From: Pelistega sp.
Lineage (GTDB): Bacteria > Pseudomonadota > Gammaproteobacteria > Burkholderiales > Burkholderiaceae_B
Length of the DNA: 64,000 nt
Direction of reading: 5' to 3'
NCBI GenBank assembly: GCA_030538255.1
Contig: JAUNUI010000014.1
Location: 19,903-83,902 of the forward strand
In this document: positions 15,272-37,056 of the stretch, in pieces
How positions within the stretch are numbered: position 1 is the first letter of the stretch
Layout of the letters: each line of letters starts with the position of its first letter
Notes under the pieces: generated by a model
Told to the model about the DNA's origin: nothing
Seen by the model: only the letters and a program-made list of their open reading frames with translations
Databases searched by the model: none
Translations under genes and position numbers: made by a program

Positions 15272-16066
15272 TTATCGGGAATTTAGATACTCAGCTACCC
15301 TATCCTTCAGCCATAAAATACATGCCTCCACAAGCTCTGGTTTACTCGATAGACGATCCTCAATAAGTCCCAGATAAGCTTGCCTTGCTTCCTCCAGCAC
15401 ATGGCCATACTCGGCAGGCGAACGCTGCATAGCCCATTGCGCCGCAGCGTCTTTGGCAATAATATCCCCAGTCACAGCGCTATACCATATCCGCGCCAAG
15501 GTCAGAAGTATATTTCGTTCCTCTCCCGCCCAGTCATCAGCTTGATTCCACATGGGTAGCGTATCGGCCAATACCTGATAGAAATCCGCTTGTGGCACAG
15601 GCTCTATCAGACTTGTCGCAGGCGGTCCCATTAGTGCCAGACTCTTTTTCCTTACTTTCTTCAGCAACACCGCCACATCAGGATCAAGCATAGCCGCTTC
15701 AAACTCACCCGCCTGAATTTCCTCACGTTGCCACTCGCCAAACTGCAACTCTCGCCTAGCAGGATAATGCCACGGCACAATATCATCATGAACCAACACC
15801 GTTATTTCCAATGCACGCAGCTGCTCATCCTCACCAGGAGGTGCAGAAATAGCCAATAAATCTTGGAAAAAGGCTGGGCGAGCAAAGGCAGACGGCAGCT
15901 CGGATATCAGCACCAAAAGATCAATATCACTATGCGCTTGTAACCCACCATCCACCGCCGAGCCATACAAATACACCCCTAGCAAACTGCCTTTGAGGTG
16001 TTGTTGTATGAGACCAAGCGCTTGAGATACTTGAGACTTAATTGAGTTGGGGATTGATTGGGGCAT
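15272..16066 (-). CDS. ANT(3'')-type aminoglycoside nucleotidyltransferase (AadA-like)
   Basis: A 264-residue protein that aligns by eye over its whole length with AadA. It has the nucleotidyltransferase motif YGSAVDGGL..HSDIDLLV (residues about 34-52), the acidic residue in ALEITVLVHDD, and the AadA stretches RRELQFGEWQR, WAGEERN and RIWYSAVTG. The family adenylates streptomycin and spectinomycin. No integron attC site or integrase is visible beside it, so it looks like a chromosomal copy. Base use resembles the surrounding core genes. Actual resistance is not shown by sequence. Confidence 0.88.
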   Translation of the reverse strand: MPQSIPNSIKSQVSQALGLIQQHLKGSLLGVYLYGSAVDGGLQAHSDIDLLVLISELPSAFARPAFFQDLLAISAPPGEDEQLRALEITVLVHDDIVPWHYPARRELQFGEWQREEIQAGEFEAAMLDPDVAVLLKKVRKKSLALMGPPATSLIEPVPQADFYQVLADTLPMWNQADDWAGEERNILLTLARIWYSAVTGDIIAKDAAAQWAMQRSPAEYGHVLEEARQAYLGLIEDRLSSKPELVEACILWLKDRVAEYLNSR

Positions 16067-18954: not shown

Positions 18955-19548
18955 TTAGATAGCATTCTCAATAGCATTTGCAATCTTTTTGTACCACTCT
19001 GGCAAGCGTTTACTTCTGTAGCTTACTTGGCGAGACTTAATGGTAACAATTGACCGATGTTTCTTCCCACTATTATCAAATATAAACAATCTATCGGCTA
19101 AGGGCGCGATCTTGACGAAGTTATTCATTGACTGACCGTAACGTCTTAAAATTGCCTCAACTGGAACATCGTGACCGCCTACATTGACTCTTGTTTTAAC
19201 CCTAGCAAGCGACTGTAGGGAACCAGACAAACCAACATATATCAGGTTAATTTTATAGCCAAGTTCTTTTGTTTTTTTAATAAGCGTTATTTCAGAATTG
19301 CCCGATAATGTCGTTTCAAATACAAATGTTTTTCGATTTTCAACTAGACTAGATCTTAAGGTTAACGCTTGTCTTGCCGCCTGAATTTGCAAGGCATTGT
19401 CTGTGAGATGAGGATTCTCTGACTGAATAGCAATTTTCATATTATCTGGATTGACATAGTCAATTTCTTTATCGAAAAAACGTCTATATAAGGTCGTCTT
19501 TCCAGCCCCATTGGTCCCACAGAAGACCCATAATTGAGGCTGTGTCAT
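18955..19548 (-). CDS. Zeta-toxin-like P-loop kinase
   Basis: A 197-residue protein of the COG4185/zeta group, with Walker A GTNGAGKTT at residues 11-19, the NPDN motif that follows in zeta-like kinases, FVFETTLSG and RVxxGGHDVP near residue 125. Zeta toxins phosphorylate UDP-N-acetylglucosamine; the substrate of this shorter branch is not established. It overlaps its small upstream partner by 1 nt (TAATG), the layout of an antitoxin-toxin pair. Confidence 0.8.
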   Translation of the reverse strand: MTQPQLWVFCGTNGAGKTTLYRRFFDKEIDYVNPDNMKIAIQSENPHLTDNALQIQAARQALTLRSSLVENRKTFVFETTLSGNSEITLIKKTKELGYKINLIYVGLSGSLQSLARVKTRVNVGGHDVPVEAILRRYGQSMNNFVKIAPLADRLFIFDNSGKKHRSIVTIKSRQVSYRSKRLPEWYKKIANAIENAI

Positions 19549-20032: not shown

Positions 20033-20740
20033 CTACCCTCGCGCCAACAACATCTCCACCAACTCAGGCACGCCTTCGCTAGCGCGCTTGGCTATCACGT
20101 CGGTCAACAAACCTGGTGGTGCTTCAGGGGGATTCGGGTCCACAAGATATATCTCGGTGCGTGGTCGCGCATATTCTAATAAAGAAGCCGCTGGATAGAC
20201 CTTCAAGGAGGTCCCCACCACAATCACAATTTCAGCCAAATCCATTAAACGCGTTGCCCGCATAAACTCAGGCACAGGCTCACCAAACCAGACTATATTC
20301 GGTCGCATTAAATTCAAGCGCATATCTAATTGACGTATACTCTGATCGCCCTCAATCTGCTCAATATAATCCGCATCCGCCGAGCTACGCAATTGGTCTA
20401 GGCGCCCATGCAAGTGCAGAATCTTGCGGCTACCTGCTCGCTCATGCAATAAGTCCACATTCTGCGTGATGATTTCCACATCGTACCTAGACTCAAGCTG
20501 CTGCAAGCTGTGATGCGCTGCATTCGGCTGAGCAGCCATCGCTTGGCGCCGACGCATATTATAAAAATCAATCACCTGCTGCGGGTCCTTGGCAAAGGCC
20601 TCAGGCGTGCACACGTCTTCAATCCGATAACCCGCCCACAAACCATCCGCATCACGGAATGTCTGTAACCCACTATCTGCGCTAATCCCCGCTCCACTGA
20701 GCACAACAATTCTTTTCATCGCCAGCATATCGTTAAACAA
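20033..20740 (-). CDS. cobB: Sirtuin-type NAD-dependent deacylase, zinc cysteines absent
   Basis: A 235-residue Sir2-fold protein: GAGISADSGLQTFRDADGLW (NAD binding), TQNVDLLHERAG, catalytic His in HLHG, VWFGEPVPE and VVGTSLKVYPAA. Sirtuins remove acetyl or other acyl groups from lysine using NAD. The usual four zinc cysteines are missing: the stretch between HLHG and VWFGE has none. The start is uncertain: TTG 20740 has a GAGG site, and ATG 20728 or 20719 give a more usual N-terminus. Confidence 0.88.
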   Translation of the reverse strand: MFNDMLAMKRIVVLSGAGISADSGLQTFRDADGLWAGYRIEDVCTPEAFAKDPQQVIDFYNMRRRQAMAAQPNAAHHSLQQLESRYDVEIITQNVDLLHERAGSRKILHLHGRLDQLRSSADADYIEQIEGDQSIRQLDMRLNLMRPNIVWFGEPVPEFMRATRLMDLAEIVIVVGTSLKVYPAASLLEYARPRTEIYLVDPNPPEAPPGLLTDVIAKRASEGVPELVEMLLARG

Positions 20741-24997: not shown

Positions 24998-25007
24998 AAG
25001 CAACTCT

Positions 25008-25862
25008 TTACCGCTCAAAAACACTTAACTTTCTTTTACTCAATTCAAAAAATTGCGTATCAATTTCACTACCACAAAATTTACGCTGAAGATTAAGCGC
25101 TGCAACTCCAGTTGAGGCACTCCCCATAAAAGGATCAAATATTAGGTCGCCCTCATTACTTGCCGCCAAGATACACCTTTCTATTAAAGCCAAGGGTTTT
25201 TGCGTGGGATGTTTGCCAAATAGCTTTTCAATAGCTTTAGGAGGAGCGATAGTCCAAACACATTTCATTTGCTCACCACCATTTAACCCACACATCTGCT
25301 GATAATTAAACGTATGTTTAGCGCTTTTACTCTTTTTGGCCCAAAGCAAAGTCTCAAATGAATGCGTGAAATAACGACAAGATAAATTGGGAGGAGGATC
25401 TGGCTTCTCCCATGTAATATTATTTAAGATGTAATAGCCAAGTTTTTGAAGCGTATACCCCACCATATAAATATTATGCTGTGAGCCACAGACCCATATA
25501 GTTCCGTTGGGCTTGAGGAGACTGTAACTCAATTTCAACCAACGCTCATAGAATTCTAGATCTGCGTGAAAGCCTTCCGATTTATCCCACTCACCTTTGT
25601 TAACAGAGGCAATCTTGCCACTTTTACAAGTAATCCCATTATTCGATAAAAAATATGGTGGGTCAGCAAAAATCATATCAAAACAACCGTTGGGATGCTT
25701 TTCTAGGATCATCTCCATAAGAGAAAAAGAATCTGCGTTATAAATCATGAAGTTATTCGACAAATACTTTTTTAAAACCTGCATTCTTTTTTGCTTCCAT
25801 TTAGGCAAATAAGTAGTTGGCACTTTGTTAAAATTACTATCACCATTAATTTGTAAATGCAT
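25008..25862 (-). CDS. DpnA-like type II DNA methyltransferase
   Basis: A 284-residue beta-class methylase. The catalytic DPPY lies at residues 67-70 (FADPPYFLS) and the SAM motif FDPFMGSASTG is near the C-terminus, with the group-typical VNKGEWDKS, WVCGS and GKHPTQKP. It most resembles DpnA-type enzymes, which in DpnII systems protect GATC, including on single strands. ATG 25862 is preferred to a TTG at 25868. It is divergent from the Dam-like gene, sharing a 230-bp promoter region. Confidence 0.88.
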   Translation of the reverse strand: MHLQINGDSNFNKVPTTYLPKWKQKRMQVLKKYLSNNFMIYNADSFSLMEMILEKHPNGCFDMIFADPPYFLSNNGITCKSGKIASVNKGEWDKSEGFHADLEFYERWLKLSYSLLKPNGTIWVCGSQHNIYMVGYTLQKLGYYILNNITWEKPDPPPNLSCRYFTHSFETLLWAKKSKSAKHTFNYQQMCGLNGGEQMKCVWTIAPPKAIEKLFGKHPTQKPLALIERCILAASNEGDLIFDPFMGSASTGVAALNLQRKFCGSEIDTQFFELSKRKLSVFER

Positions 25863-26094
25863 CAACACTTTGCTGCGTTATTTCTTCCCAAAGGCTATAC
25901 TCACAGATACTAATTTATGGCTATAGTCTATAGTTTAGTCTTCGCCACCTACTTATCACCTTGCTCACTTAAAAGTTATCATGTGAAATCCCTACCCAAA
26001 ACAATTATATCAGCGGGATATTAGCAACAATTTCATTTGTGACAAAAAAAGCCAGGTATTAAATCTATATTTTAAAAATTGTGTCATCCTTAAA

Positions 26095-26934
26095 ATGAGT
26101 AGAAAAAACAATCTAGTCACTCCTGTCCTTAAATGGGTTGGAGGCAAACGCCAATTACTAGCAGAATTAACTCCTTTGCTTCCCAAAAGCATTACCAAAT
26201 ACTGCGAACCGTTTGTCGGAGGTGGAGCTCTTCTTTTCAATTTACAACCAAGAACAGCATATATTAATGACATTAATGAAGAGTTGATTCGTGTCTATAG
26301 AATAATTAAAGATGATGTTGAATCCCTCATTGCACAGCTAAAAGAGCACAAAAATGATGCTGATTATTTCTATCAGGTAAGAGATTGGGATAGAGACAAA
26401 GAAAAATATTTATCGCTTTCGGAAGTAGAGAAAGCTGCGCGTATTATTTATTTGAATAAAACTTGTTATAACGGCCTTTTTAGGGTAAATAGTGCTGGAG
26501 AGTTTAATACTCCTTTTGGACATTATCGGAATCCTAATATTGTCAATGAACCAACACTTCGTGCTGTAAGTCTGTATTTTCAAAGCACCAATATTCAATT
26601 AAGCTCATTAGATTATGCAGAGGTACTTCAAGGTCTTCCAAAAGGAACTTTTGTCTATCTTGACCCACCATACGATCCTATTTCTGATACATCTAGTTTC
26701 ACAGGTTATTCAAAAGGTGGTTTTTCTCGTGAAAATCAAATTCGTCTGCGCGAATGCTGTGATGAACTAGACAAAAGAGGCTTAAAGTTTATGCTTTCGA
26801 ATTCTGCGACTGATTTTATTAAAGAGCAGTATGATTCGTATAACATAAAAACTGTACAAGCCAAAAGGATTGTCAACTCAGATGCAACGAAACGCGGTGA
26901 AGTTAATGAGGTTGTAATAAGAAACTATGAGTGA
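26095..26934 (+). CDS. Dam/DpnM-type N6-adenine DNA methyltransferase
   Basis: A 279-residue alpha-class methylase: KWVGGKRQLL (residues 13-22), FVGGGAL SAM loop (40-46), the Dam hallmark NKTCYNGLFRVN with GEFNTPFG (121-142), and catalytic DPPY at 190-193. Its closest recognisable relatives methylate GATC (Dam, DpnM), but EcoRV-type relatives have other targets, so GATC is an inference. Its stop overlaps the endonuclease start by 8 nt, which points to a restriction-modification operon. Confidence 0.92.
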   Translation: MSRKNNLVTPVLKWVGGKRQLLAELTPLLPKSITKYCEPFVGGGALLFNLQPRTAYINDINEELIRVYRIIKDDVESLIAQLKEHKNDADYFYQVRDWDRDKEKYLSLSEVEKAARIIYLNKTCYNGLFRVNSAGEFNTPFGHYRNPNIVNEPTLRAVSLYFQSTNIQLSSLDYAEVLQGLPKGTFVYLDPPYDPISDTSSFTGYSKGGFSRENQIRLRECCDELDKRGLKFMLSNSATDFIKEQYDSYNIKTVQAKRIVNSDATKRGEVNEVVIRNYE

Positions 26935-28222
26935 GAAAAAAAGTTTAAACCAAATAGCTTGGGAAGAAATCTTTAAAACGCATGACGTACTAAACAAAAT
27001 AAGTACCGATGGCGAGTTTATAATTAACGCCAGCGAAATCAAACGATTTAGAGAGCCTAGATTAATGAGCAAATTTGACAATGAAATCAATTTGCCCAAA
27101 ATTTTCAAAGATCACAAGCTCGCAATCTTGCCAATATCCAGAAGTAGTTACATAATTTCACACTTCGAGGCATACCATAAATTTGAAGCTCCTGATGATA
27201 GTAATATTGCTACGATCAACTTTCCGATTCCAGATCATATACAAAGTTTAGATTTCGCAAACATCACAAGTGAAGCAATTGCTTTAAATTGTGCTTTAGC
27301 TGCTGGCATAATTACAGATTTCGTTGGTGACATGCCCTTAATACCGACAGTTTCTGGACGCATGAGTTCAAAATCTTTTGACTTCAACATTAATAACACA
27401 TACAAAAATACACCTCACTCAGTGAGTGTCAATAATTCACAAATTGAAATTGATGCAGCCTATGAATGCCCCCACTGTTTAGCAATTTTTGAAGCTAAAC
27501 GTGATATATCAACAGACCTTTTAATCAGGCAACTGTACTACCCCTACAGACTTTGGAAAAACACAATTAGCAAACCTGTTAAACCATTTTTTCTAACATA
27601 TTCAAATGGCATTTTTCGTTTATATGAGTTTGCTTTTGAGGATATCAATAACTACAACTCACTAATTTTAATAAAACAGAAAAAATACTCTGTTGAAAAT
27701 ACAATTATTGAACTCAATGACATTGAAGATGTGTTAAGACGAACTGCTCTTGTAAAGGAACAAAGCATACCGTTTCCTCAAGCTAATAGTTTTGAGCGTG
27801 TTATTAACCTCTGTGAGTTGTTAAATGATAAAGAGTTAAATCATGACGATATAACCGTAGAATATGCATTTGATTCTCGCCAAACAGATTACTATACAAA
27901 TGCCGCAAAATATTTAGGCCTACTCGAAAGAGTTAATGATACACCAGAAACACCATACAATCTTACTGACTTAGGCAAAAGAATTCTTAGCTTAAGCTAT
28001 AAACAACGTCAATTAGCTTTTTGCTCTCAAATTCTATCCCACAAGGCATTTAATGAAGTCCTAAAGCTCCATTTAGAAATAAGTAGGATGCCTTCAACGG
28101 CAATGATAGTCAAAATTATGAAGAAAGCTAATTTACATAATATACACAGCGATAACACTTATGAAAGAAGATCCTCAACCATCAAGAGTTGGGTAAACTG
28201 GATCCTCAGTTTAATTTCTTAA
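26927..28222 (+). CDS. Probable type II restriction endonuclease
   Basis: A 431-residue protein overlapping the Dam-type gene. Residues 172-192 hold a PD-(D/E)xK-like core: QIEIDAAYE, then FEAKRD, giving Asp176, Glu189 and Lys191 as the likely catalytic set. A CPHC pair lies between them. The C-terminal 140 residues look like a winged-helix region (YYTNAAKYLGLLERV…YNLTDLGKRI). It is not DpnII, MboI or Sau3AI by length or sequence. Function rests on the motif and the operon. Confidence 0.75.
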   Translation: MSEKKSLNQIAWEEIFKTHDVLNKISTDGEFIINASEIKRFREPRLMSKFDNEINLPKIFKDHKLAILPISRSSYIISHFEAYHKFEAPDDSNIATINFPIPDHIQSLDFANITSEAIALNCALAAGIITDFVGDMPLIPTVSGRMSSKSFDFNINNTYKNTPHSVSVNNSQIEIDAAYECPHCLAIFEAKRDISTDLLIRQLYYPYRLWKNTISKPVKPFFLTYSNGIFRLYEFAFEDINNYNSLILIKQKKYSVENTIIELNDIEDVLRRTALVKEQSIPFPQANSFERVINLCELLNDKELNHDDITVEYAFDSRQTDYYTNAAKYLGLLERVNDTPETPYNLTDLGKRILSLSYKQRQLAFCSQILSHKAFNEVLKLHLEISRMPSTAMIVKIMKKANLHNIHSDNTYERRSSTIKSWVNWILSLIS

Positions 28223-28353
28223 AAAAATTACGGAAATTCATAAGCATATACTTATTGATACGCCATAACTGGAAAATCACATAAAGTTATCTATTTTCAC
28301 TCTATTAGTAATACATATTTTTGAATCTCCATCTAAACATTAGCTAACTCGCT

Positions 28354-28566
28354 CTATAAACCCTCTTCTTTTTCATGCGATACAAAAAAATCAGATAAGC
28401 GAATCCCAAATGCTTGGCAGATTTTCATAAGCATCTTTACTGTTGGATCGCACTCATTACGCTCAAGCCGCCCATAATATTTTTCATTGATGTCCGCCTT
28501 TTCTGCCAATAAACTCTGAGTCAAACCATTTTTTTCTCTATAAAACTTAAGTGTGTTTCCAAGCAT
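28354..28566 (-). CDS. XRE-family regulator (controller-like)
   Basis: A 70-residue protein that is almost wholly one HTH_XRE domain (GLTQSLLAEKADINEKYYGRLERN), the size of restriction-controller C proteins. It lies between the restriction endonuclease and the AIPR-type gene and is divergent from the latter. The perfect palindrome 9 bp before its start is the likely binding site. Confidence 0.85.
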   Translation of the reverse strand: MLGNTLKFYREKNGLTQSLLAEKADINEKYYGRLERNECDPTVKMLMKICQAFGIRLSDFFVSHEKEEGL

Positions 28567-28574
28567 GGTTGATT

Positions 28575-28590
28575 ACCGCATATATGCGGT
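28575..28590. promoter_or_regulatory. Perfect 16-bp palindrome, candidate operator
   Basis: ACCGCATATATGCGGT is fully symmetric. It lies between the divergent XRE and AIPR-type genes, 9 bp from the former's start and 66 bp from the latter's, so one dimer could control both. Confidence 0.7.
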
Positions 28591-28655
28591 TTTAAAAAAA
28601 ACAATGATACCTCATAATAACATCACATTAACCATTAAACCAAGAGGTGGTAATT

Positions 28656-29825
28656 ATGAAATTCGAATTTCCAATTAATACTTTTCGTATGCTCCCTAAT
28701 CCTTACGGAGAATATACCGAAAGAAACTCAAATCCTGTTGTCTATGAGTGCTATGTAGAAGTACAAGATATACCTGACAACTTCCCCATGGAAACCAATC
28801 CTAGGGAGCAAAATTTAAAAACAAACGTAGCCAAAAATATCGAGGAAAGCCTCAAGTCATATGAAGAAAATTTTCATATAAAAAACAGAGGCATTATCCT
28901 TTCTGCTGCTAGCTTCGCCTTTAACTCCAAAACGAGTCACGCAACAATCTTTATGACTGACACCGAAGTTCATGGTAATGTCGATGGCGGTCACACATAC
29001 AAAATTATTCTAGCTAATCGCAATGAACTTCAAGATAAACAATATGTACGCTTGGAGGTAATTATTGGAGCAGAAGACTTTTTTCAAGATCTAGCTAAAG
29101 CAAGAAACACATCAGTTCAAGTCAAAGACACTTCCATAGCTGAGCTTGAAAAAAAATTTGAATTTATAAAAGATGCTATTGGACCCTTAGCAAACGAAAT
29201 TGCATTTAAAGAAAATGATATAGACAAAAGGATTAGTATCGATAACATTATCTCCATTTTAAGTACATTTAATTTAAATACTTACTCAGACGCAGACAAA
29301 CAGCCCATTAGTGCTTATAGCCAGAAAAGTTTTTGCGTTAAGCAGTTTTTGGCATATGATGAAAATGATATTCATAATCCTTTTCACAAAATGGTCCCCA
29401 TCATTCCTTCGATTCTAAAGTTACATGATTATATTGAAAAGAAGTTACCCGAAAAATACAAAGAAGTTGAGCCAGGGGGGAAATATGGCCTAATTAAAGG
29501 CATTCAATCCAAAAAAGAAAACAGCAAAGTAAAATTTCAGACTGATATTTACGGCGATGATATTGAATACAAAAGTCCGAGATCTTTTGTTTTGCCAATT
29601 CTTGCTTCTTTCAGGGCATTAATCAGAGAAAATGAAGAAGGTTACTATGAATGGATCGACAGTCCATTTAAGCTCTTTGATAAAGTTGGCGGACAAATGG
29701 CAAAAAACACTAAAGAGCGATCAAAATCTTTAGGATATAATGTTAACGCTTTAGGTAAAGATGCAGGACATTGGCGAGACCTATTTCAAATAGTGCTTAT
29801 CGAAAAGCTAATGAAAAACGCATAA
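28656..29825 (+). CDS. AIPR-like abortive infection protein
   Basis: A 389-residue protein. FHIKNRGIIL followed by VHGNVDGGHTYKII resembles the NxGI…VDGGHT core of the AIPR (abortive infection phage resistance) group. The N-terminal part is beta-rich and the C-terminal part helical with a conserved-looking GHWRDLF. I use ATG 28656, preceded by AAGAGG at ideal spacing, instead of GTG 28647. No toxin active site is recognisable. The XRE gene next to it is the likely regulator. Confidence 0.6.
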   Translation: MKFEFPINTFRMLPNPYGEYTERNSNPVVYECYVEVQDIPDNFPMETNPREQNLKTNVAKNIEESLKSYEENFHIKNRGIILSAASFAFNSKTSHATIFMTDTEVHGNVDGGHTYKIILANRNELQDKQYVRLEVIIGAEDFFQDLAKARNTSVQVKDTSIAELEKKFEFIKDAIGPLANEIAFKENDIDKRISIDNIISILSTFNLNTYSDADKQPISAYSQKSFCVKQFLAYDENDIHNPFHKMVPIIPSILKLHDYIEKKLPEKYKEVEPGGKYGLIKGIQSKKENSKVKFQTDIYGDDIEYKSPRSFVLPILASFRALIRENEEGYYEWIDSPFKLFDKVGGQMAKNTKERSKSLGYNVNALGKDAGHWRDLFQIVLIEKLMKNA

Positions 29826-29858
29826 CAAAATTTGACCTAAGATATATACTGTCTAAAG

Positions 29859-29934
29859 TGTAGAAGTTCAAATCTAACCTGACAGACACCACTAACCAAA
29901 CGGGGAACTGTCAGATGAGATTTAAACTTCTACA
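29859..29934. repeat. 76-bp imperfect inverted repeat, possible MITE or structured RNA
   Basis: A 27-nt arm at 29859-29885 pairs with 29908-29934 (24 of 27 positions) around a 22-nt loop. The outer ends read TGTAGAAGTT…AACTTCTACA. It lies 34 bp after the AIPR-type stop and is not followed by a T run, so it is not a standard terminator. No clear target duplication flanks it. Confidence 0.75.
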
Positions 29935-30034
29935 ATTCAATAAACTCATGTATTTTACACAGTCAAGTCCTAGATGCATTTTAAAAGCAATCGTGAAAAA
30001 AGCTTATGGCAATTAGTCTTTAGACATATTGACA

Positions 30035-31435
30035 TTAATCCACCAAATTTCTTAATATTCCAAAATCTTTCTGGATATCATTATTATCTTTAAATGAACG
30101 TAAAGTAGAGTTTAAATAACTGTTGGCTAACTTTTCTATTCCCTTCACTTCACTGAGTTTAGTTGTTAAATACCCAAGGGGCAAAGTAACTGGATAACCA
30201 CTTAACTTTATGTGATAACACACCACCGCAAATTTATTTTTTAAAAAAAGAATTTCAGTATTGCCGTCTAAAAAACCTTCGCAAAAACCAAATAATATAT
30301 CATCCTGAATATCTTTGAATTGATATCTCCATCCATCTATTTCATGCTTAGTTCTTTTTTTAGATAAAGGTAAATAAAGACGAAGTTTATAACCTTTTGA
30401 TTGCTGCTCTACCAGGCTTTGAACTTTATCATGGATTTTTTTTTGTTTACCCCAATAAATATCATTGGGCACGAGCCAGAGTAACTTCCGGTCGGGATTC
30501 ACTGCATTTTTGTCTAAGTCATTTAAAATCGTATTAATTTTTTCAAATACATCCTCTTGATGATATATTTGACCTAAAAAACACATACCACTTTGTTGCT
30601 CTCGTTTATGTTTCTCGTTTAAAAACTCTAGAAAATCTAACTTTCCTCCAAATAATATCTTCCTTAAGAAATTACATCCCAATGCTTCCATACTTTTGCT
30701 AAGTTCGTGTAAATTATCGGCGCTCCTAAATTGTGCAAGTAGCTCAGTAACCGCTTTCTGAATATTATCTTGAAAAAGCAAATTCACTATATCATGCCGT
30801 TCTTTCGATTCCCCTGTTGCGGGGAATAATTCAAATTTTTGAGTAAAACGAAAATAAACAGGGGACCCTTTAGTTTCAATAACATCAATCTTATATAAAG
30901 CAGTATCCTTTGCATCTAATTGAATAATATCATCTTCACATAATTGTCGAAATCGGGATTGAAACACTTTTCGAGCAGTTTCATTGCACTCAGATTGAAC
31001 GCGTGATTCAACTGGAACTTTAATCGCGTGCTGACTCTCTGAATCACAATCCTTTTTTAGCAAAAAATTGTTATCTAACAACTCCATACGATACTCACCG
31101 CCGTATTCATTTAATGAAGGAATTTTCGGTGAATCATCGTTACTACCGTGAAACAATTTCATCCCCTCAGATGAAATCTCGACCGTTCCATCGTCCGTCC
31201 ATAATATCCATTTGTTTCGTGCTAAGTCCTCTAATGAAACTTCAGTCTCATAATGATTAAAACCAAAATAGTGTGCAATCTGTTCTGGTTTACAAGGAGT
31301 CAAATATAATAATCGCAATAAATACTCACGAACAAACGCCACATTTTTGTCGCTCATGCAAGAAAAAACAATACGAAAACGCGGAGCTAAAATAACGAAA
31401 TCTATTTGATTATAGGGAGTTTCATACACATTCAT
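30035..31435 (-). CDS. Partner protein of the NERD-kinase-helicase, family unknown
   Basis: A 466-residue protein whose ATG overlaps the stop of the large gene (TAATG), so the two are translated together. The N-terminal 100 residues look like a winged-helix region (ylLRLLYLTPCKPEQIAHYFG…LARNKWI). The middle is charged and helical. The last 150 residues alternate strands and helices (LLWLVPNDIYWGK, YKLRLYLPLSKK, VVCYHIKLSGYPVTLP). An HxK tripeptide in that last part lacks the Asp and downstream Gly-Ser/Asn of a PLD HKD site. I assign no function. Confidence 0.8.
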   Translation of the reverse strand: MNVYETPYNQIDFVILAPRFRIVFSCMSDKNVAFVREYLLRLLYLTPCKPEQIAHYFGFNHYETEVSLEDLARNKWILWTDDGTVEISSEGMKLFHGSNDDSPKIPSLNEYGGEYRMELLDNNFLLKKDCDSESQHAIKVPVESRVQSECNETARKVFQSRFRQLCEDDIIQLDAKDTALYKIDVIETKGSPVYFRFTQKFELFPATGESKERHDIVNLLFQDNIQKAVTELLAQFRSADNLHELSKSMEALGCNFLRKILFGGKLDFLEFLNEKHKREQQSGMCFLGQIYHQEDVFEKINTILNDLDKNAVNPDRKLLWLVPNDIYWGKQKKIHDKVQSLVEQQSKGYKLRLYLPLSKKRTKHEIDGWRYQFKDIQDDILFGFCEGFLDGNTEILFLKNKFAVVCYHIKLSGYPVTLPLGYLTTKLSEVKGIEKLANSYLNSTLRSFKDNNDIQKDFGILRNLVD

Positions 31436-34400
31436 TAATTCATTCCTTTTTGGCGCATTGTCTTCAATGCATACTTATGATCACCTAAACGCTGTTGAAT
31501 AAATTTCAACACCCTACCTAAGGGCATTTTGCTATTTTGAGGTTGCTCCCAGACTGTTGCCGCACCAACAATAATTAATTTATCCATTGCACGCGACAAA
31601 GCCACATTGATACGGTTTGGCAGATATAAAAAACCTGTGCTGAACTCTTTATCATGACGAGATAACGACAGAATAATTATTCTATTTTCTTTGCCCTGAT
31701 AGCTATCCACACTGTCAATTTTTACCAAACGACGAAATGCATCATCCCATGTTTTTTCATTAAATTTTTTTCGGATCAATTTTTTCTGTTCTGCATACAT
31801 ACAAATTACACCAATGGCTGGTGTATTAGATTGCAGGCAGCGTTGCACCATTTCACTAGTCATAATGGTTTCATCATTTGCCAAATCTTGCAATAGCTCC
31901 AGAATAACATCAGCTTCAGCCCGATTAAAAAAGCTATTTTTATTCTGTATATGATAAGAATTAGATAATTTTGTCGTATCCAACCATGTCACACTACTTT
32001 TAAAATTATCAGGTAGTCCTGAATATATATCAGGAACATCACTCTCTGTTTTGCCATTCTCCAATACACCGTCATAAAAACATGTTGAAATCAAACTACC
32101 AATAGCAGGAGCCATGCGATACTGTACTTTTAGTGTTGCACAGGTCTGTTTTCCATATTCTGATTGAAAAACTCTTTCAAAATCACTGCCTAATGCCTGA
32201 TCTAATTCATCTCCTCGTTTAGAAATACCTAAGCGACGAGCCAAGGCATTTTTATGCTCCGTTGAATATAATGGCGGTAATTGTTTTTGATCCCCTACCA
32301 ACAAAATACGCTTACCTGATTGCATTGCAATAGCTAATTCGCTGGAGATAGATCGAGCGGCTTCATCAACAATTACCCAGTCATAGATATTATCTGCAAT
32401 ACCAATATGCTTTTGCCCGATACCCACGCAAGTTCCCACTACTAGCTGGCGAGAACGAGCCAGAAACTCATCGTAATTTGTACGGTTATTAGACAAAGCC
32501 TCCAACATATCCCTCGTTAAATCAATTAGCTTTCCTGCCTGTAAACTTTCAGCTGGTTGGATATTATACTTATGGTCAAGTTTAGCAACTAGCTTTAGTG
32601 AAATTTGACCAACCTCTAATACCTCAACATTAGTTAAGCCTAATTGCTCTGCTCGATTCCTAATAACCTTCTCTATCGACTTGACTAAACGTTTTTCGTC
32701 TTCATCGATTTGCGAACCAATGGGAGGGCTTTTTACCAACTTTAAATATCGTCGAATCTGAACACCAATATCAAATTGCATTTTTGCTCGTTCACGCAAA
32801 TACTCTTCAGGCAATCCCATTGCTCTGCCTAATTGGCAAATATTTATAATTTTATTCACTGCTAGCTGTTGACGCTTTTGCCCAACCAAATTTTGTGAGA
32901 AAACGTCCTCTAACTCTTCCGAGTCTGCTATTTCACGGTTACTAAATCGTACAATTTGTAAATTAGTACCTAAACGCATACTATGCTTACGAACTCTTTC
33001 TGCTGCGGTATTCACAGCCTCGTGAGATTGACTAACAAGTAAAATACTATTTACATTTTGTTGGTCAAACAAATAATGTACAAAAGCAGCAATAAACTCA
33101 GTTTTCCCTGTTCCAGGAGGGCCTTGCAGTAAAGAAAGAGGGCCATTTGATATTAAAACTTGAAAAGCCTGACGTTGCGCTTCATTCAAGCTTATAGTTT
33201 CACCGTGCAAGCCAATCCTATCATAACGTGCAAATTGCTCATCGCTCACAAAAATCCCATAATTATTAGGAGCCTGAGTACAATCTTCATCAAAGTATTG
33301 AACTAAGTTTTTAATTACACTTTCATTATCTAAAATACGTTGTAGCGCACTTTTTCTCCGTTGATAAGAAGCTTTATTTTGTATACTTTGCAAATAAATA
33401 GGTGTATCAAATTCAATTTTCTCACTAGAATAATTCAGTTTTCTAGATTTTAAATGTAATTCATTTAAACAACTTTTAATCAGATCTACAGTGCCATATT
33501 TGAAAGTTTTTTCATTCTTATCGTCAAAACCAAGCGCCTCAACAATTTCATCTCTATTAAATTGGTCTAGTGGGTCAATATCACCATCATAAGGAATATA
33601 AATCTCACCTGTTTCCAGCTTTTGTAGTCCAGCACTTGCGGTAATTGCAGGTAAAGCTTCTGTTTCTGTATTCAAAATAGCTTCCCACAAATCTTTAGTT
33701 TTAGGACGTTGCAACATAATTTCTACTTCATCAGAAATTAGTACCGCCCCAACCCCAAACCCAGTATTGGATTCAATTTTACCAAGCGTTTTTGGTTCTG
33801 GATGCTTAAAAATATGTTCACGGATGAACCCATTAATTGCTTGTTTAAACAATTTGTTTTCGGATAGCTTTTCATTTAATTTATCAAAGCCACTTGCAAA
33901 ATGATATGAAACTTTCAGACTTATAGCTAAACTTAGTTCACTATTATCCTTGTCAAGCTTAGTAATATAATCGCGTTCAATTGGAGTTTGCGCATAGGTA
34001 AATTTGTTCTCACGTACTGAATACAATACTTTTAAGATACCGCCCAAACCAATAAAACTCACTAAAACATTGTCTGATGTACCTCTTTCAAACTTAACAA
34101 ATAACTCATCATTTTCAGGATAAATCTCTATTGGATTAAATGTATTTCTTCCACCAATCAAAACCTCAATTGAAGGTATTATCTGCTTAGGATTCAAAGC
34201 CTCTTTAAAACGATCTAGAGAAATAAAATTGCTTTGTAAATCTTGATTTTCAAGCTGTATTACATCACTAATATCGCTGAACTTCTCTGACGGCATATTC
34301 CAAGTGATATTTAAGAGCTCACACGCCATTTTCATTACGGCAAAATTATCACACTGCATCTCTGTCGCATTATCAAAAGCAGGAGCGTATTCAGTATTAA

Positions 34401-36426
34401 ATTGTTTTTTCCCATTTATTGAAAAATCAAAAATATCCAAGAGATACAATCTAAATTCATCGTTATACATTGTAACTAGAATATTATCTGGCTTTAAATC
34501 ACCATGTGTAAATCCCAATCCATGCAAATGCTCAATATTGTGTAACAGCATATTAATAAGAGCAATCTTTTTTTCATCGGTTAAACCATCTAATTCTGCA
34601 ACTTGTGACCAAGTGTAGCCATTCTCAATAAAATCACTTACTATAAACAAACTGCTCGATTTTCGAGCGATACCAAAACTACGAATTTTAGGCAAATAAT
34701 CTGGTGATAATTGCGCTAATTTTGCGATGCTTCCCAGCCAATTAAAGACAATGCGCGCCTCATGCCTATCTTTATGTGGATCTGCCCTAAGCCATGCTTT
34801 AACTAAGGCACCATTAGAGAGGTAAACTTCTTTTTCAGCTGTTTCTTTAATAAATCCATCATCTTCGCGATAAGCACGTGAATGACTTATATCGTGATAG
34901 AATGGTTCCAATTTAGAAAATTCAAATGAAAAATCTAATGTTTGCTCAGGCTTTTTCTGGTTAAATCTCTCCAAAAATTCCTGTGCATTTTGAAAAGGTT
35001 TATCTGATAGTGCTGTACGTAATATATTTACATACCACTCTGTATTTACTTCTAAATTGCTTTGCATTTTTTGCAAACTATCTGGCGACACTCTCTCTGC
35101 ATGAATAATATGCCATATTAAAACTGCTAACGTACGGACATCTGACTGGTATACTGTTAAATTTACTCTATCTGACAGTGGAAAATTAATTTTTGCTAAA
35201 TCCCCTGATACTGCCAAAATATCACGAACATCACCAACAGTTTGTTCTGATGAAAGATAAGCGGTAGCAAATCCTGACAGCATAATTTTATCGTCTACCG
35301 ACAACCAAATGCTATGTTCTCCTAAATCACGATGAGCAATGTTAATTTGGTGCAGTTGCACAAACTTATCCAGTAATAATTTAACCAAATCAAATCGGCG
35401 TTCAATGTTCAAATTCTGAACACTGTGCCCGCCAACAAATTGATTAAAGCGTTTTTGTTGAGGGAACAACTCAAAGATGTCAATATGCTCAGCTGTTACT
35501 TCTCCTTTTTGTGGTGTATTTTTATACTTTAAACATGTATGATACAACTCTGCATTATGTAATTTTATGTATTGTAAAATATCGTACTCTCGACTGATTA
35601 GCCGAAAACGCCCATCAGGTGTTTGCACTTCAGGTCGTTGAATTTTAGTGAAATCCCAACGACGTAGCAAGGCAACATCTCGATGTTTCTTATATTCTGA
35701 TTGAGCAAAATACTCACGATAAATATTGTTAGGATGCTCAAAGATAGGGGCATCTTCTGCGTAATAACCACCTATACTGATTGATTTAGGCTTAACTGTG
35801 TCAATACCGAAAATTTTCTTATCAAATATTTCAAAATCTTGATTTAATGACTTACTATTTGGGTGCGGACGAAAACGTTGATTAAATCTATGCTCTTCTT
35901 TTAATTCTAAAAAATCGGATAAATTTAATACATACAGTTTTTCATTTTCATCTAACTCACTAAAATCTGCATTGCCCGTCATGACAACCAAAAAATGAAC
36001 CTGAGGGCGATAATTTTTATTAGTAAATTCCTGTTTAAATTTATCTAGTTTCTTTTCCAGTAAGTATTGTTTACTCCTTGTAATGGATACTGGCGAGCGA
36101 CCTCTGTCCTGACCATTTAAACTCCACCTATCCTTAGATGATTTAATTATTCCTCCATTCCAATGCTTTAGCTCCACAATCAAAACATTACAATGGGTGA
36201 TAATTACTAAGTCAAATTCGCCATCCTTGCGTTCTCGCACATCAGATAAGCGAAAACCAGAATATCCTCTCCATGGAAAGATAGATTTTAAAGACTTTAA
36301 TGCACTTAATCCATCTCCTTTTACTATTTTTTGTTCTGAATTAGAACTTGAAAATGCCTGTTTGATTTTTTCAATGGCATCTAACTCATGCAATGTTAAT
36401 CCACCACCCCAGTCAATAACTTCCAT
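31435..36426 (-). CDS. NERD-kinase-kinase-SF1 helicase fusion, probable defence protein
   Basis: A 1663-residue multidomain protein. Residues 25-150 are NERD-like, with GEFD at 69-72 and VELK at 84-87 as a PD-(D/E)xK core. Residues 230-490 are kinase-like but degenerate: HRDLGEHS (365-372) lacks the metal-binding Asn and the DFG position reads SGF. Residues 510-745 hold a second kinase with Lys543, HGDLKPDN (641-648) and DIF (664-666), apparently intact. Residues 1060-1640 are a UPF1/COG1112-type SF1 helicase with GPPGTGKT (1102-1109), VDEAA (1353-1357), GDQKQLPP (1378-1385), QYRM and SYQGKE. It overlaps its partner by 1 nt. Confidence 0.92.
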   Translation of the reverse strand: MEVIDWGGGLTLHELDAIEKIKQAFSSSNSEQKIVKGDGLSALKSLKSIFPWRGYSGFRLSDVRERKDGEFDLVIITHCNVLIVELKHWNGGIIKSSKDRWSLNGQDRGRSPVSITRSKQYLLEKKLDKFKQEFTNKNYRPQVHFLVVMTGNADFSELDENEKLYVLNLSDFLELKEEHRFNQRFRPHPNSKSLNQDFEIFDKKIFGIDTVKPKSISIGGYYAEDAPIFEHPNNIYREYFAQSEYKKHRDVALLRRWDFTKIQRPEVQTPDGRFRLISREYDILQYIKLHNAELYHTCLKYKNTPQKGEVTAEHIDIFELFPQQKRFNQFVGGHSVQNLNIERRFDLVKLLLDKFVQLHQINIAHRDLGEHSIWLSVDDKIMLSGFATAYLSSEQTVGDVRDILAVSGDLAKINFPLSDRVNLTVYQSDVRTLAVLIWHIIHAERVSPDSLQKMQSNLEVNTEWYVNILRTALSDKPFQNAQEFLERFNQKKPEQTLDFSFEFSKLEPFYHDISHSRAYREDDGFIKETAEKEVYLSNGALVKAWLRADPHKDRHEARIVFNWLGSIAKLAQLSPDYLPKIRSFGIARKSSSLFIVSDFIENGYTWSQVAELDGLTDEKKIALINMLLHNIEHLHGLGFTHGDLKPDNILVTMYNDEFRLYLLDIFDFSINGKKQFNTEYAPAFDNATEMQCDNFAVMKMACELLNITWNMPSEKFSDISDVIQLENQDLQSNFISLDRFKEALNPKQIIPSIEVLIGGRNTFNPIEIYPENDELFVKFERGTSDNVLVSFIGLGGILKVLYSVRENKFTYAQTPIERDYITKLDKDNSELSLAISLKVSYHFASGFDKLNEKLSENKLFKQAINGFIREHIFKHPEPKTLGKIESNTGFGVGAVLISDEVEIMLQRPKTKDLWEAILNTETEALPAITASAGLQKLETGEIYIPYDGDIDPLDQFNRDEIVEALGFDDKNEKTFKYGTVDLIKSCLNELHLKSRKLNYSSEKIEFDTPIYLQSIQNKASYQRRKSALQRILDNESVIKNLVQYFDEDCTQAPNNYGIFVSDEQFARYDRIGLHGETISLNEAQRQAFQVLISNGPLSLLQGPPGTGKTEFIAAFVHYLFDQQNVNSILLVSQSHEAVNTAAERVRKHSMRLGTNLQIVRFSNREIADSEELEDVFSQNLVGQKRQQLAVNKIINICQLGRAMGLPEEYLRERAKMQFDIGVQIRRYLKLVKSPPIGSQIDEDEKRLVKSIEKVIRNRAEQLGLTNVEVLEVGQISLKLVAKLDHKYNIQPAESLQAGKLIDLTRDMLEALSNNRTNYDEFLARSRQLVVGTCVGIGQKHIGIADNIYDWVIVDEAARSISSELAIAMQSGKRILLVGDQKQLPPLYSTEHKNALARRLGISKRGDELDQALGSDFERVFQSEYGKQTCATLKVQYRMAPAIGSLISTCFYDGVLENGKTESDVPDIYSGLPDNFKSSVTWLDTTKLSNSYHIQNKNSFFNRAEADVILELLQDLANDETIMTSEMVQRCLQSNTPAIGVICMYAEQKKLIRKKFNEKTWDDAFRRLVKIDSVDSYQGKENRIIILSLSRHDKEFSTGFLYLPNRINVALSRAMDKLIIVGAATVWEQPQNSKMPLGRVLKFIQQRLGDHKYALKTMRQKGMN

Positions 36427-37056
36427 AGCAAATTTGTTTTCCTTTTAGTAAGATTCTCAATAATTAACCGTAATATTTATACGACACATTTCCTTTGTCA
36501 ATCAAATTTTGTGACTATTCAAAATACAGAACTACCTAACACTAAAAGCCCAAATTATTCCCATTTCTACACCATAATTTGATTACACAAACCTAGTTCA
36601 ATTCCGCTGTAAAACTCATTATTTCCTATCTACTAAAATATAATTAAACTCTCACATTTCCCTATTAAGACTAAGAATTTAATATTAAGAGCTTTTCATT
36701 TTACAATTTGCCAATTCCTCCTTATTACCCCTCAGAATATACAAAAATAATTAAATTGAAAGCAATGTTCTGTAAACACCAGTTCTGAGTGTAAACTCTT
36801 TGCGCCTCATTATATCTTTTACTTACAAAATTACATCAAATTGTCAGCTTACAACTTTTTCACCACACCCGCCAACCCCCACCCCACCTCAATCCACCGC
36901 CAATTCCCCTGCATTTCCCACCCAAAACCACAAATTTGTAAAATTCAGCCAATTGTCAGATTTTTGTCTAATTGTCACAGACATGTAATATTCATTTCTT
37001 ACACTTCAGTTTTCACCCCCTCTTATTACTATTAGTTTTGTTTGGAGCGAACTATT
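36427..37056. other. AT-rich intergenic region upstream of phnD
   Basis: 630 bp with no convincing gene. It serves as promoter region for the large island gene on the left and for phnD on the right. The right end holds the candidate Pho box. The change from AT-rich to core-like composition falls near 37.0 kb and marks the island edge. Confidence 0.6.
36953..36970 (+). promoter_or_regulatory. Candidate Pho box of the phosphonate transporter operon
   Basis: TTGTCAG-attt-TTGTCTA gives two 7-bp units 11 bp apart, as in the PhoB consensus CTGTCAT-AWAW-CTGTCAT. A third TTGTCAC starts at 36972, and a TAATAT -10-like box follows at 36986-36991. It lies about 87 bp before phnD. Confidence 0.5.

What the first reader, a model, noticed from the sequence alone, without database searches (positions are those of the whole stretch)
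30035..36426. Two-gene defence-like operon: NERD + pseudokinase + kinase + SF1 helicase with an unknown partner
Seen: a 1663-residue protein with NERD, two kinase-like and UPF1-type helicase regions, overlapping by 1 nt a 466-residue partner. Established: kinase-helicase proteins with a second nuclease gene are known as Mokosh type I, and NERD domains are predicted nucleases. Inference: this is a related but distinct anti-phage system, because it adds NERD and a second kinase copy and the partner lacks a recognisable HKD site. It sits beside restriction-modification and AIPR-type genes.
Basis: partly seen in the sequence, partly recalled or inferred. Interest (0 to 1): 0.85.

Follow-up and report, generated by a model that had tools for sequence, protein, structure and literature searches.

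The report
Known anti-phage system Mokosh type I
This two-gene unit is a catalogued bacterial anti-virus defence system, Mokosh type I, in the form whose large protein carries a NERD nuclease-like part while its small partner looks like a nuclease that has lost its cutting site.

Summary
In detail: a 1663-aa and a 466-aa gene overlap by 1 nt (TAATG) on the minus strand, with NERD, two kinase-like regions and a UPF1-like SF1 helicase. NERD is already in print for Mokosh type I, and NERD-pseudokinase-kinase is a described module of PglW and some DndF. The partner lies directly downstream in 30 of 30 evaluable relatives.

What may be new concerns mechanism. 'Mokosh type I' covers two architectures. 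In the NERD branch (one clade) the NERD D-[E/D]-K residues are kept in 30 of 30 evaluable rows, while MkoB is a predicted PLD fold without HKD in 30 of 30. Without NERD, MkoB keeps HKD in 15 of 19. So NERD is the only recognisable nuclease site here. This rests on one evolutionary event, and HKD was also lost where no NERD is present, so 'transfer of the nuclease' is a hypothesis. The pair sits in a 12-kb low-GC defence island.

The parts
31435..36426 (-). mkoA, 1663 aa: NERD + pseudokinase + kinase + SF1 (UPF1-like) helicase
   Evidence: PADLOC PDLC03921 MkoA E=0, 1710.7 bits, residues 1-1657 on 1-1600 of 1607; Pfam NERD, Pkinase, AAA_11, AAA_12
30035..31435 (-). mkoB, 466 aa partner; start overlaps the mkoA stop by 1 nt (TAATG)
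   Evidence: PADLOC PDLC03923 MkoB 5.2e-82, residues 6-461 on 8-451 of 454; sequence
35980..36300 (-). NERD domain of MkoA (residues 43-149), D72, E85, K87
   Evidence: PF08378 1.3e-11; D72 and K87 in 30 of 30 evaluable rows of 31, position 85 E in 27 and D in 3
34882..35751 (-). first kinase-like region (about residues 226-515), pseudokinase: HRD kept, DFG Asp replaced by Ser/Thr
   Evidence: 31-row alignment; local matches to PADLOC PglW 39-380 and NCBIfam MAD6 58-488, below its cut-off
34147..34881 (-). second kinase region (about residues 516-760), catalytic residues K543, D643, N648, D664 present
   Evidence: Pfam Pkinase 581-669; all four residues kept in 28 of 31 rows, not in L024, L034, L140
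31543..33189 (-). SF1 helicase (residues 1080-1628), UPF1/IGHMBP2-like, Walker A GPPGTGKT, DE box
   Evidence: AAA_11/AAA_12; TIGR00376 2.1e-49, 168.6 bits, below its cut-off of 348.9; NAM7/UPF1 chains in the PDB, best 4.8e-26
30926..31402 (-). N-terminal winged-helix-like part of MkoB (about residues 12-170)
   Evidence: profile match to HKD-bearing short-form MkoB over 12-170, probability 93.8%; weak Foldseek matches (E 0.04 to 0.09) to small DNA-binding regulators
30086..30595 (-). C-terminal pseudo-PLD domain of MkoB (about residues 281-450): PLD fold predicted, HKD absent; W328, E394, G421 invariant, H408 and P419 in 29 of 30
   Evidence: AlphaFold2; Foldseek top matches NucT, F13, PLD, FAM83A, E 3.3e-4 to 8.6e-4; residue counts

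Best explanation
The operon is a Mokosh type I anti-phage system of the NERD branch. MkoA joins the portable NERD-pseudokinase-kinase module known from PglW and some DndF proteins to a UPF1-like SF1 helicase. MkoB is a winged-helix-like protein with a PLD-fold domain that has lost the HKD site. Most likely sequence of events: the helicase, with MkoB as nucleic-acid-binding partner, engages phage-derived RNA or DNA and uses ATP; this changes the state of the pseudokinase-kinase pair, which phosphorylates MkoA, MkoB or a cell target; NERD, the only recognisable nuclease site in the pair, is released to cut nucleic acid; MkoB acts as sensor, scaffold or brake and not as the nuclease. Shown here: gene identity, order and conservation of the pair, domain make-up, catalytic residues kept or lost. 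Inferred: every functional step, the nucleic acid sensed, and the order of events.
For: Full-length PADLOC matches of both proteins. MkoB directly downstream of MkoA in 30 of 30 evaluable NERD-branch rows out of 31. NERD D and K in 30 of 30 evaluable rows; the twelve helicase motif residues tabulated are kept in every row that reaches them. Kinase-2 catalytic set in 28 of 31. HKD at the homologous place in 0 of 30 NERD-branch partners against 15 of 19 partners of NERD-less MkoA. PLD fold of MkoB: seven PDB matches at E<=0.001, all PLD-family chains (FAM83A recognised from memory under the record name BJ-TSA-9). PglW analogy: NERD, a kinase-like region without a predicted ATP site, and a Hanks kinase needed for phage resistance (PMC4365076, passages). 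The best stretches of NERD-less MkoA of L052, L082 and L096 on PDLC03921 begin at position 513-518, that is they run from kinase 2 through the helicase, so NERD + pseudokinase is an N-terminal extra module. Placement in a low-GC island beside R-M and AIPR genes.
Against: No activity was measured. The NERD branch is a single clade, so the coincidence of NERD presence and HKD absence is one event, not a repeated pattern. HKD is also missing in 4 of 19 NERD-less partners (L053, L154, L157, L158), so losing HKD does not require NERD; the partner of L053 even matches PDLC03923 (62.8 bits) better than PDLC03922 (50.8) although its MkoA has no NERD hit. Kinase-2 residues are lost in L024 and L034 (one clade) and K543 in L140, so kinase activity is not universal. 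The MkoB model is modest (mean pLDDT 61.7, other four models 40.5-49.8; TM-scores by target 0.28-0.54, rmsd 7.1-7.8), and the C-terminal halves of the two MkoB kinds do not match by profile (0.5%). PMC11291487 states that Mokosh degrades viral transcripts (passage), without naming a nuclease site there. NERD is called putative and as yet uncharacterised in PMC4365076.
Confidence: 0.55

Rival explanations
1. MkoB is still the nuclease: the PLD fold keeps a remodelled active site built on E394 (in the strand where the HKD histidine would sit) with H408, W328 and the P419-x-G421 turn, and NERD only binds nucleic acid.
For: W328, E394 and G421 are invariant in 30 of 30 aligned NERD-branch MkoB, H408 and P419 in 29 of 30, more conservation than a bare scaffold would seem to need.
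Against: I know of no HKD-family nuclease using such residues (recalled, not searched); NERD keeps a complete D-[E/D]-x-K set in 30 of 30 evaluable rows; the nearest solved folds include FAM83A, of a family called pseudo-PLDs (PMC6008594).
Confidence: 0.2
2. The kinase is the effector: phosphorylation of a host target halts growth, and NERD and MkoB only regulate.
For: Kinase-2 residues kept in 28 of 31; PglW kinase activity is needed for Pgl resistance (PMC4365076); three alphaproteobacterial NERD-less loci without HKD carry a gene annotated as PP2C phosphatase next to MkoB, and the two of their MkoA scanned have a Pfam kinase (L154, L158).
Against: The clade of L024 and L034 has lost the catalytic Asp and Asn of kinase 2 while keeping NERD, helicase and MkoB.
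Confidence: 0.15
3. A distinct, uncatalogued anti-phage system.
For: Two different architectures are filed under Mokosh type I, and the NERD branch is a separate clade.
Against: Both proteins match catalogued MkoA and MkoB over full length; NERD already listed for Mokosh type I (PMC10952713); same order, spacing and partner family as in E. coli.
Confidence: 0.05
4. The pair is not antiviral but a nucleic-acid maintenance or plasmid-conflict module.
For: The pair is found on plasmids (145 of 72,556 records with at least 80% of MkoB in one place).
Against: Same family as a system reported as anti-phage (Millman 2022, recalled; not held); defence-island neighbours here.
Confidence: 0.05

Closest known systems
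Mokosh type I, PADLOC models PDLC03921 (MkoA) and PDLC03923 (MkoB)
   Same: Both proteins over full length, same order, same strand, start/stop overlap
Mokosh type I, the NERD-less form (PDLC03920 MkoA, PDLC03922 MkoB)
   Same: Kinase + linker + SF1 helicase (aligning to kinase 2 through helicase of the NERD form), followed by a partner with a homologous N-terminal part
   Different: No NERD hit, no pseudokinase region; partner with an intact HxKx4D in 15 of 19
PglW of type 2 BREX / Pgl
   Same: N-terminal NERD, inactive then active kinase (PMC4365076, PMC12839542; passages); local match 39-380, 3.1e-25
   Different: C-terminal half is an SF1 helicase, not wHTH + iSTAND; NCBIfam PglW 77.1 bits against a cut-off of 990
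DndF subset with NERD + tandem kinases
   Same: Identical tripartite N-terminal module according to PMC12839542; the same variants in PMC10853773
   Different: Fused to a P-loop nucleotide kinase core, not to a helicase (from those papers); no comparison run here
MAD6 of the MADS defence system
   Same: Local match 58-488, 1.8e-29
   Different: 102.8 bits against a cut-off of 460; the model is 612 positions long, so it does not cover the helicase part of MkoA
FAM83 / DUF1669 pseudo-PLD proteins
   Same: PLD-like domain, in all members but FAM83D without the catalytic His, that binds a Ser/Thr kinase (PMC6008594, passages); structural match 4urj
   Different: Vertebrate proteins, no shared ancestry claimed; analogy only

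Membership tests
Mokosh type I | Large protein matches the MkoA family over its full length | tested here: met
   PDLC03921, E=0, 1-1657 on 1-1600 of 1607
Mokosh type I | Small protein matches the MkoB family over its full length | tested here: met
   PDLC03923, 5.2e-82, 6-461 on 8-451 of 454
Mokosh type I | MkoA carries Ser/Thr kinase and SF1 RNA-helicase-like domains (definition recalled from Millman 2022) | tested here: met
   Pfam Pkinase, AAA_11, AAA_12; UPF1/NAM7 in the PDB
Mokosh type I | The two genes are adjacent on one strand, MkoA first | tested here: met
   same in 30 of 30 evaluable relatives
Mokosh type I | Partner carries a PLD-like domain (listed for Mokosh type I in PMC10952713) | tested here: met
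   At the level of a predicted fold only; no Pfam PLD match
Mokosh type I | Protection against phages | not testable with these tools
   needs an experiment
Active HKD (PLD-type) nucleases | HxKx4D catalytic motif in the partner | tested here: not met
   Absent in the window protein and at the homologous place in 30 of 30 NERD-branch partners; so MkoB is not filed as an active HKD nuclease. I do not count it as a defining feature of Mokosh type I, because the relatives that go with the same MkoA model lack it too
Mokosh type II (MkoC) | One fused helicase-PLD protein (definition recalled) | tested here: not met
   Two genes; PDLC03924 matches only part of the protein, best stretch 1346-1638
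PglW / type 2 BREX | Full-length PglW with its C-terminal half | tested here: not met
   NF033442 77.1 bits, cut-off 990
PglW / type 2 BREX | N-terminal NERD + pseudokinase + kinase module | tested here: met
   with PMC4365076 and PMC12839542 (passages)
MADS (MAD6) | Score above the curated cut-off | tested here: not met
   NF047741 102.8 bits, cut-off 460

The most novel reading that the evidence does not exclude
The NERD branch of Mokosh type I is a functionally different machine from the HKD branch: it acquired the PglW/DndF-type NERD-pseudokinase-kinase cassette, moved the cutting activity from MkoB to MkoA, and turned MkoB into a pseudo-PLD that anchors or gates the kinase-helicase, a bacterial parallel to FAM83 pseudo-PLD kinase anchors.
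Probability: 0.25. Interest if true: 0.55.

Novelty: new member of a known kind. Interest (0 to 1): 0.3.

Why it matters
Read plainly it is one more copy of a catalogued defence system. The use of the case is mechanistic: Mokosh type I is summarised as helicase-kinase plus PLD nuclease (recalled), yet in the branch seen in E. coli (at least 80% of the pair in 309 of 5426 genomes) the partner has no HKD site and the NERD residues are intact. This makes a clear test of which protein cuts. The three NERD-less alphaproteobacterial loci with an added PP2C gene give a second natural variant for studying what the kinase does.

Tried and rejected
Rejected: a distinct new system; an intact HKD site in the partner; BREX type 2 and MADS membership; a sequence-level profile match between the C-terminal halves of the two MkoB kinds (probability 0.5%, so the PLD assignment of this MkoB rests on the fold alone, while the N-terminal parts match at 93.8%).

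Dead ends: an alignment of 12 MkoB proteins had no conserved stretch for a collection scan; three MkoB scans and one MkoA scan of viral contigs gave no relative. The class-wide search with PDLC03923 gave one strong hit (the window) in 369 genomes; the other 16 were partial matches of 18-29 bits, not used. PDLC03922 in 369 genomes of the class gave six partial matches, not used, and rang in 1 of 14 control genomes (E. coli). PDLC03921 rings in 13 of 14 control genomes at E 1e-3 and in 1 of 14 at 1e-60, I take it because of its helicase part, so only matches over nearly the full length were counted; PDLC03923 rings in 0 of 14. The empty-site test failed because the two flanking genes have no match in six same-genus genomes. 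The promoter scan found no more than shuffles do (31 against 30.7), terminators 6 against 3.6. The MkoA fold search listed only its 50 best rows, kinase chains, and does not tell the two kinase regions apart. Foldseek's second-look library was not available. Scripts failed wholly or in part on the profile comparison; it was rerun without L117.

Rows dropped: L031 (same protein accessions as L026), L001, L003, L112-L116 and L121-L126 (shorter fetches of places kept under other ids) were left out of counts; L033 ends inside MkoA; L142 lacks the N-terminal part; L131 shows no partner. L034's partner is cut by the contig end and L129's is given stop to stop. In one search the wrong downstream ORF was picked for L152; its annotated partner has the motif. 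Of the 20 NERD-less rows I checked 9 MkoA and 11 MkoB against PADLOC: best model PDLC03920 in 9 of 9, PDLC03922 in 10 of 11, L053 being closer to PDLC03923.
Full report
Observation. Pfam gives NERD 43-149, Pkinase 581-669 and the two SF1 helicase halves 1080-1623; NAM7/UPF1 and its kin are the best PDB matches. The small protein has no Pfam or NCBIfam match and no PDB match better than E=1.

Identity. PADLOC answers the question directly: MkoA PDLC03921 covers 1-1657 of the large protein (E=0, 1710.7 bits) and MkoB PDLC03923 covers 6-461 of the small one (5.2e-82). Both are full-length matches to one catalogued system, Mokosh type I. A table in PMC10952713 (passage) lists NERD for Mokosh type I and a PLD-like domain for types I and II, citing Millman 2022. 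That paper is not held; what I say of it is recalled.

Distribution. Relatives of the pair lie on plasmids (tblastn of MkoB: 153 of 72,556 records, 145 with at least 80% coverage in one place; MkoA at 1e-20: 196 records, 145 with at least 80%; I did not check that the two sets of 145 are the same records), in three of 50,697 phage records, two of them contigs of about 10 kb, and in E. coli (309 of 5426 genomes hold at least 80% of the 6.4-kb E. coli pair). MkoA of this kind over its full or nearly full length was found in 6 of 399 genomes drawn from the order and 6 of 398 from the phylum, the window's own genome being one in both. MkoB (PDLC03923) was found strongly in 1 of 369 genomes of the class and 1 of 61 relatives, each time only the window's own. 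So the pair is rare and patchy. Of 31 NERD-branch MkoA rows, no two identical, 30 can be judged for a partner, and all 30 have an MkoB ORF directly downstream.

Two architectures. PADLOC holds two MkoA and two MkoB models. L117 shows the other form: MkoA PDLC03920 and MkoB PDLC03922, whose C-terminal part also matches MkoC. I collected 20 such NERD-less loci by HMMs made here; those checked against PADLOC agree (9 of 9 MkoA, 10 of 11 MkoB). None of the 20 has a NERD hit with my HMM, nor do any of the 8 scanned with Pfam. Of the 19 with a visible partner, 15 have HxKx4D, in 14 of them followed by TSFN or GSFN. In the NERD branch the same place reads like GNxE[IV]L...YH, and HxKx4D is absent there in 30 of 30 partners; the two chance strings seen in L029 and L136 lie elsewhere. 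For three NERD-less MkoA (L052, L082, L096) the best stretch on the NERD-branch model begins at its position 513-518, so the shared core is kinase 2, linker and helicase, and NERD + pseudokinase is an extra N-terminal part.

Catalytic residues. In the 31 MkoA rows NERD D72 and K87 are kept in 30 of 30 that reach them, position 85 is E in 27 and D in 3. The first kinase-like region has Ser (28) or Thr (3) in place of the DFG Asp. The second keeps K543, D643, N648 and D664 together in 28 of 31; the exceptions are L024 and L034 (D and N lost) and L140 (K lost). The twelve helicase residues tabulated are invariant where present. In 30 aligned MkoB, W328, E394 and G421 are invariant and H408 and P419 are kept in 29 each.

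Fold of the partner. AlphaFold2 on window MkoB with seven relatives gave mean pLDDT 61.7 (the other four models 40.5-49.8), better (about 55-86 by block of ten) over 281-430. Foldseek against the PDB gave seven matches at E<=0.001, all from the PLD superfamily: vaccinia F13, H. pylori NucT (three chains), a phospholipase D, and human BJ-TSA-9 (two chains; FAM83A, name recalled); Salmonella Nuc and mouse Zucchini follow at 3.7e-3 and 1.3e-2. TM-scores by target are 0.28-0.54 and rmsd 7.1-7.8 for the seven, so this is a fold-level, not a close, match. The N-terminal part matches the HKD-bearing MkoB by profile (93.8%, 12-170); the C-terminal halves do not (0.5%). FAM83 proteins are pseudo-PLDs that anchor CK1 kinases (PMC6008594, passages); I use that only as an analogy.

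The N-terminal cassette. PglW was described with NERD 12-130, an atypical kinase-like region without a predicted ATP site, and a Hanks kinase whose Lys is needed for phage resistance and autophosphorylation (PMC4365076, abstract and passages). PMC12839542 (passages) states that the identical NERD, inactive kinase, active kinase row occurs in some DndF, and PMC10853773 (passages) describes the same DndF variants. MkoA of the NERD branch is therefore a further carrier of a known cassette, here joined to an SF1 helicase; local matches to PglW and MAD6 agree.

Evolution. A quick tree of 65 helicase domains (30 NERD-branch, 20 NERD-less, 15 others; L033 left out) puts the 30 NERD-branch rows on one side of a single branch (SH-aLRT 99; several long branches among the others). 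NERD presence and HKD absence thus coincide once. HKD is missing also in L053 and in the alphaproteobacterial clade L154, L157, L158, none of which has NERD. L053 is of special interest: NERD-less MkoA with an HKD-less partner nearer to PDLC03923, as if HKD could go first; its branch is long and its place unsure. The simple story 'NERD replaced HKD' is possible but not shown.

Setting. From 25 to 37 kb the GC content is 0.32-0.39 per kb; in the flanks shown (14-25 and 37-46 kb) it is 0.36-0.52, at least 0.42 in 17 of 20 windows. This island holds a DNA methylase (25008-25868, -), a Dam-type methylase with a type II REase (26095-28222, +), an AIPR gene (28647-29825, +) and the Mokosh pair. Its arrival by transfer is likely, but an empty site could not be shown.

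Print check. The held library has 41 papers with the word Mokosh, 40 of them listed; none of the listed titles is about how the defence system works. I read passages of three of them (PMC10952713, PMC11291487, PMC12278908). A search for papers with at least two of Mokosh, HKD, pseudokinase, catalytically inactive and NERD (479 papers, 15 listed) listed none that contains Mokosh. In what I saw, none reports the loss of HKD in the NERD branch or the PP2C neighbour. The library lacks most subscription journals and holds no bioRxiv preprints as such, so this is weak evidence of novelty. PMC11291487 (abstract and passages) says that Mokosh degrades viral transcripts.

Verdict. Membership in Mokosh type I: about 0.95. 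NERD as the working nuclease with MkoB non-catalytic: about 0.5. The finding is a new member of a known kind, with a testable mechanistic question attached.

Noticed in passing
L154, L157, L158 (Microvirga, Aminobacter, Sinorhizobium plasmids): NERD-less Mokosh I whose MkoB lacks HKD is followed, with an overlap of 8-11 nt, by a gene annotated as PP2C-type phosphatase in 3 of 3 loci; Pfam confirms PP2C in the one scanned, L158.
   Followed up: partly
L024 and L034 (Acinetobacter): Both kinase regions of MkoA look inactive (catalytic Asp and Asn of kinase 2 lost) while NERD, helicase and MkoB are kept; L024 comes from a plasmid, and several other Acinetobacter plasmids give nearly the same match figures.
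   Followed up: partly
L053 (MAG Acetatifactor sp.): NERD-less MkoA with an HKD-less MkoB that is nearer to the NERD-branch MkoB model, a possible intermediate.
   Followed up: partly
Described only.
   Followed up: no
L156 (Mycobacterium gallinarum plasmid): HKD-bearing MkoB carries a C-terminal S1 RNA-binding domain, a hint that RNA is bound.
   Followed up: no
L028 (Pseudomonas phage vB_PaeS-D14H, BK061480): A phage record carries the NERD-branch pair beside several integrase genes.
   Followed up: no
L026 / L031 (E. coli): The pair sits beside a TnsD-annotated gene and, in L031, also a TnsA-annotated one, suggesting carriage by a Tn7-like element.
   Followed up: no
window 25000-37000: Low-GC island with a DNA methylase, a Dam-type methylase + REase pair (REase made of DUF6996/6997/7226) and an AIPR gene without an obvious partner.
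   Followed up: partly
window 15272-16066 (-): Protein with AadA_C and nucleotidyltransferase domains.
   Followed up: no
window 18955-19548 (-) and 20033-20740 (-): Zeta-toxin-like P-loop protein and a Sir2 family protein.
   Followed up: no
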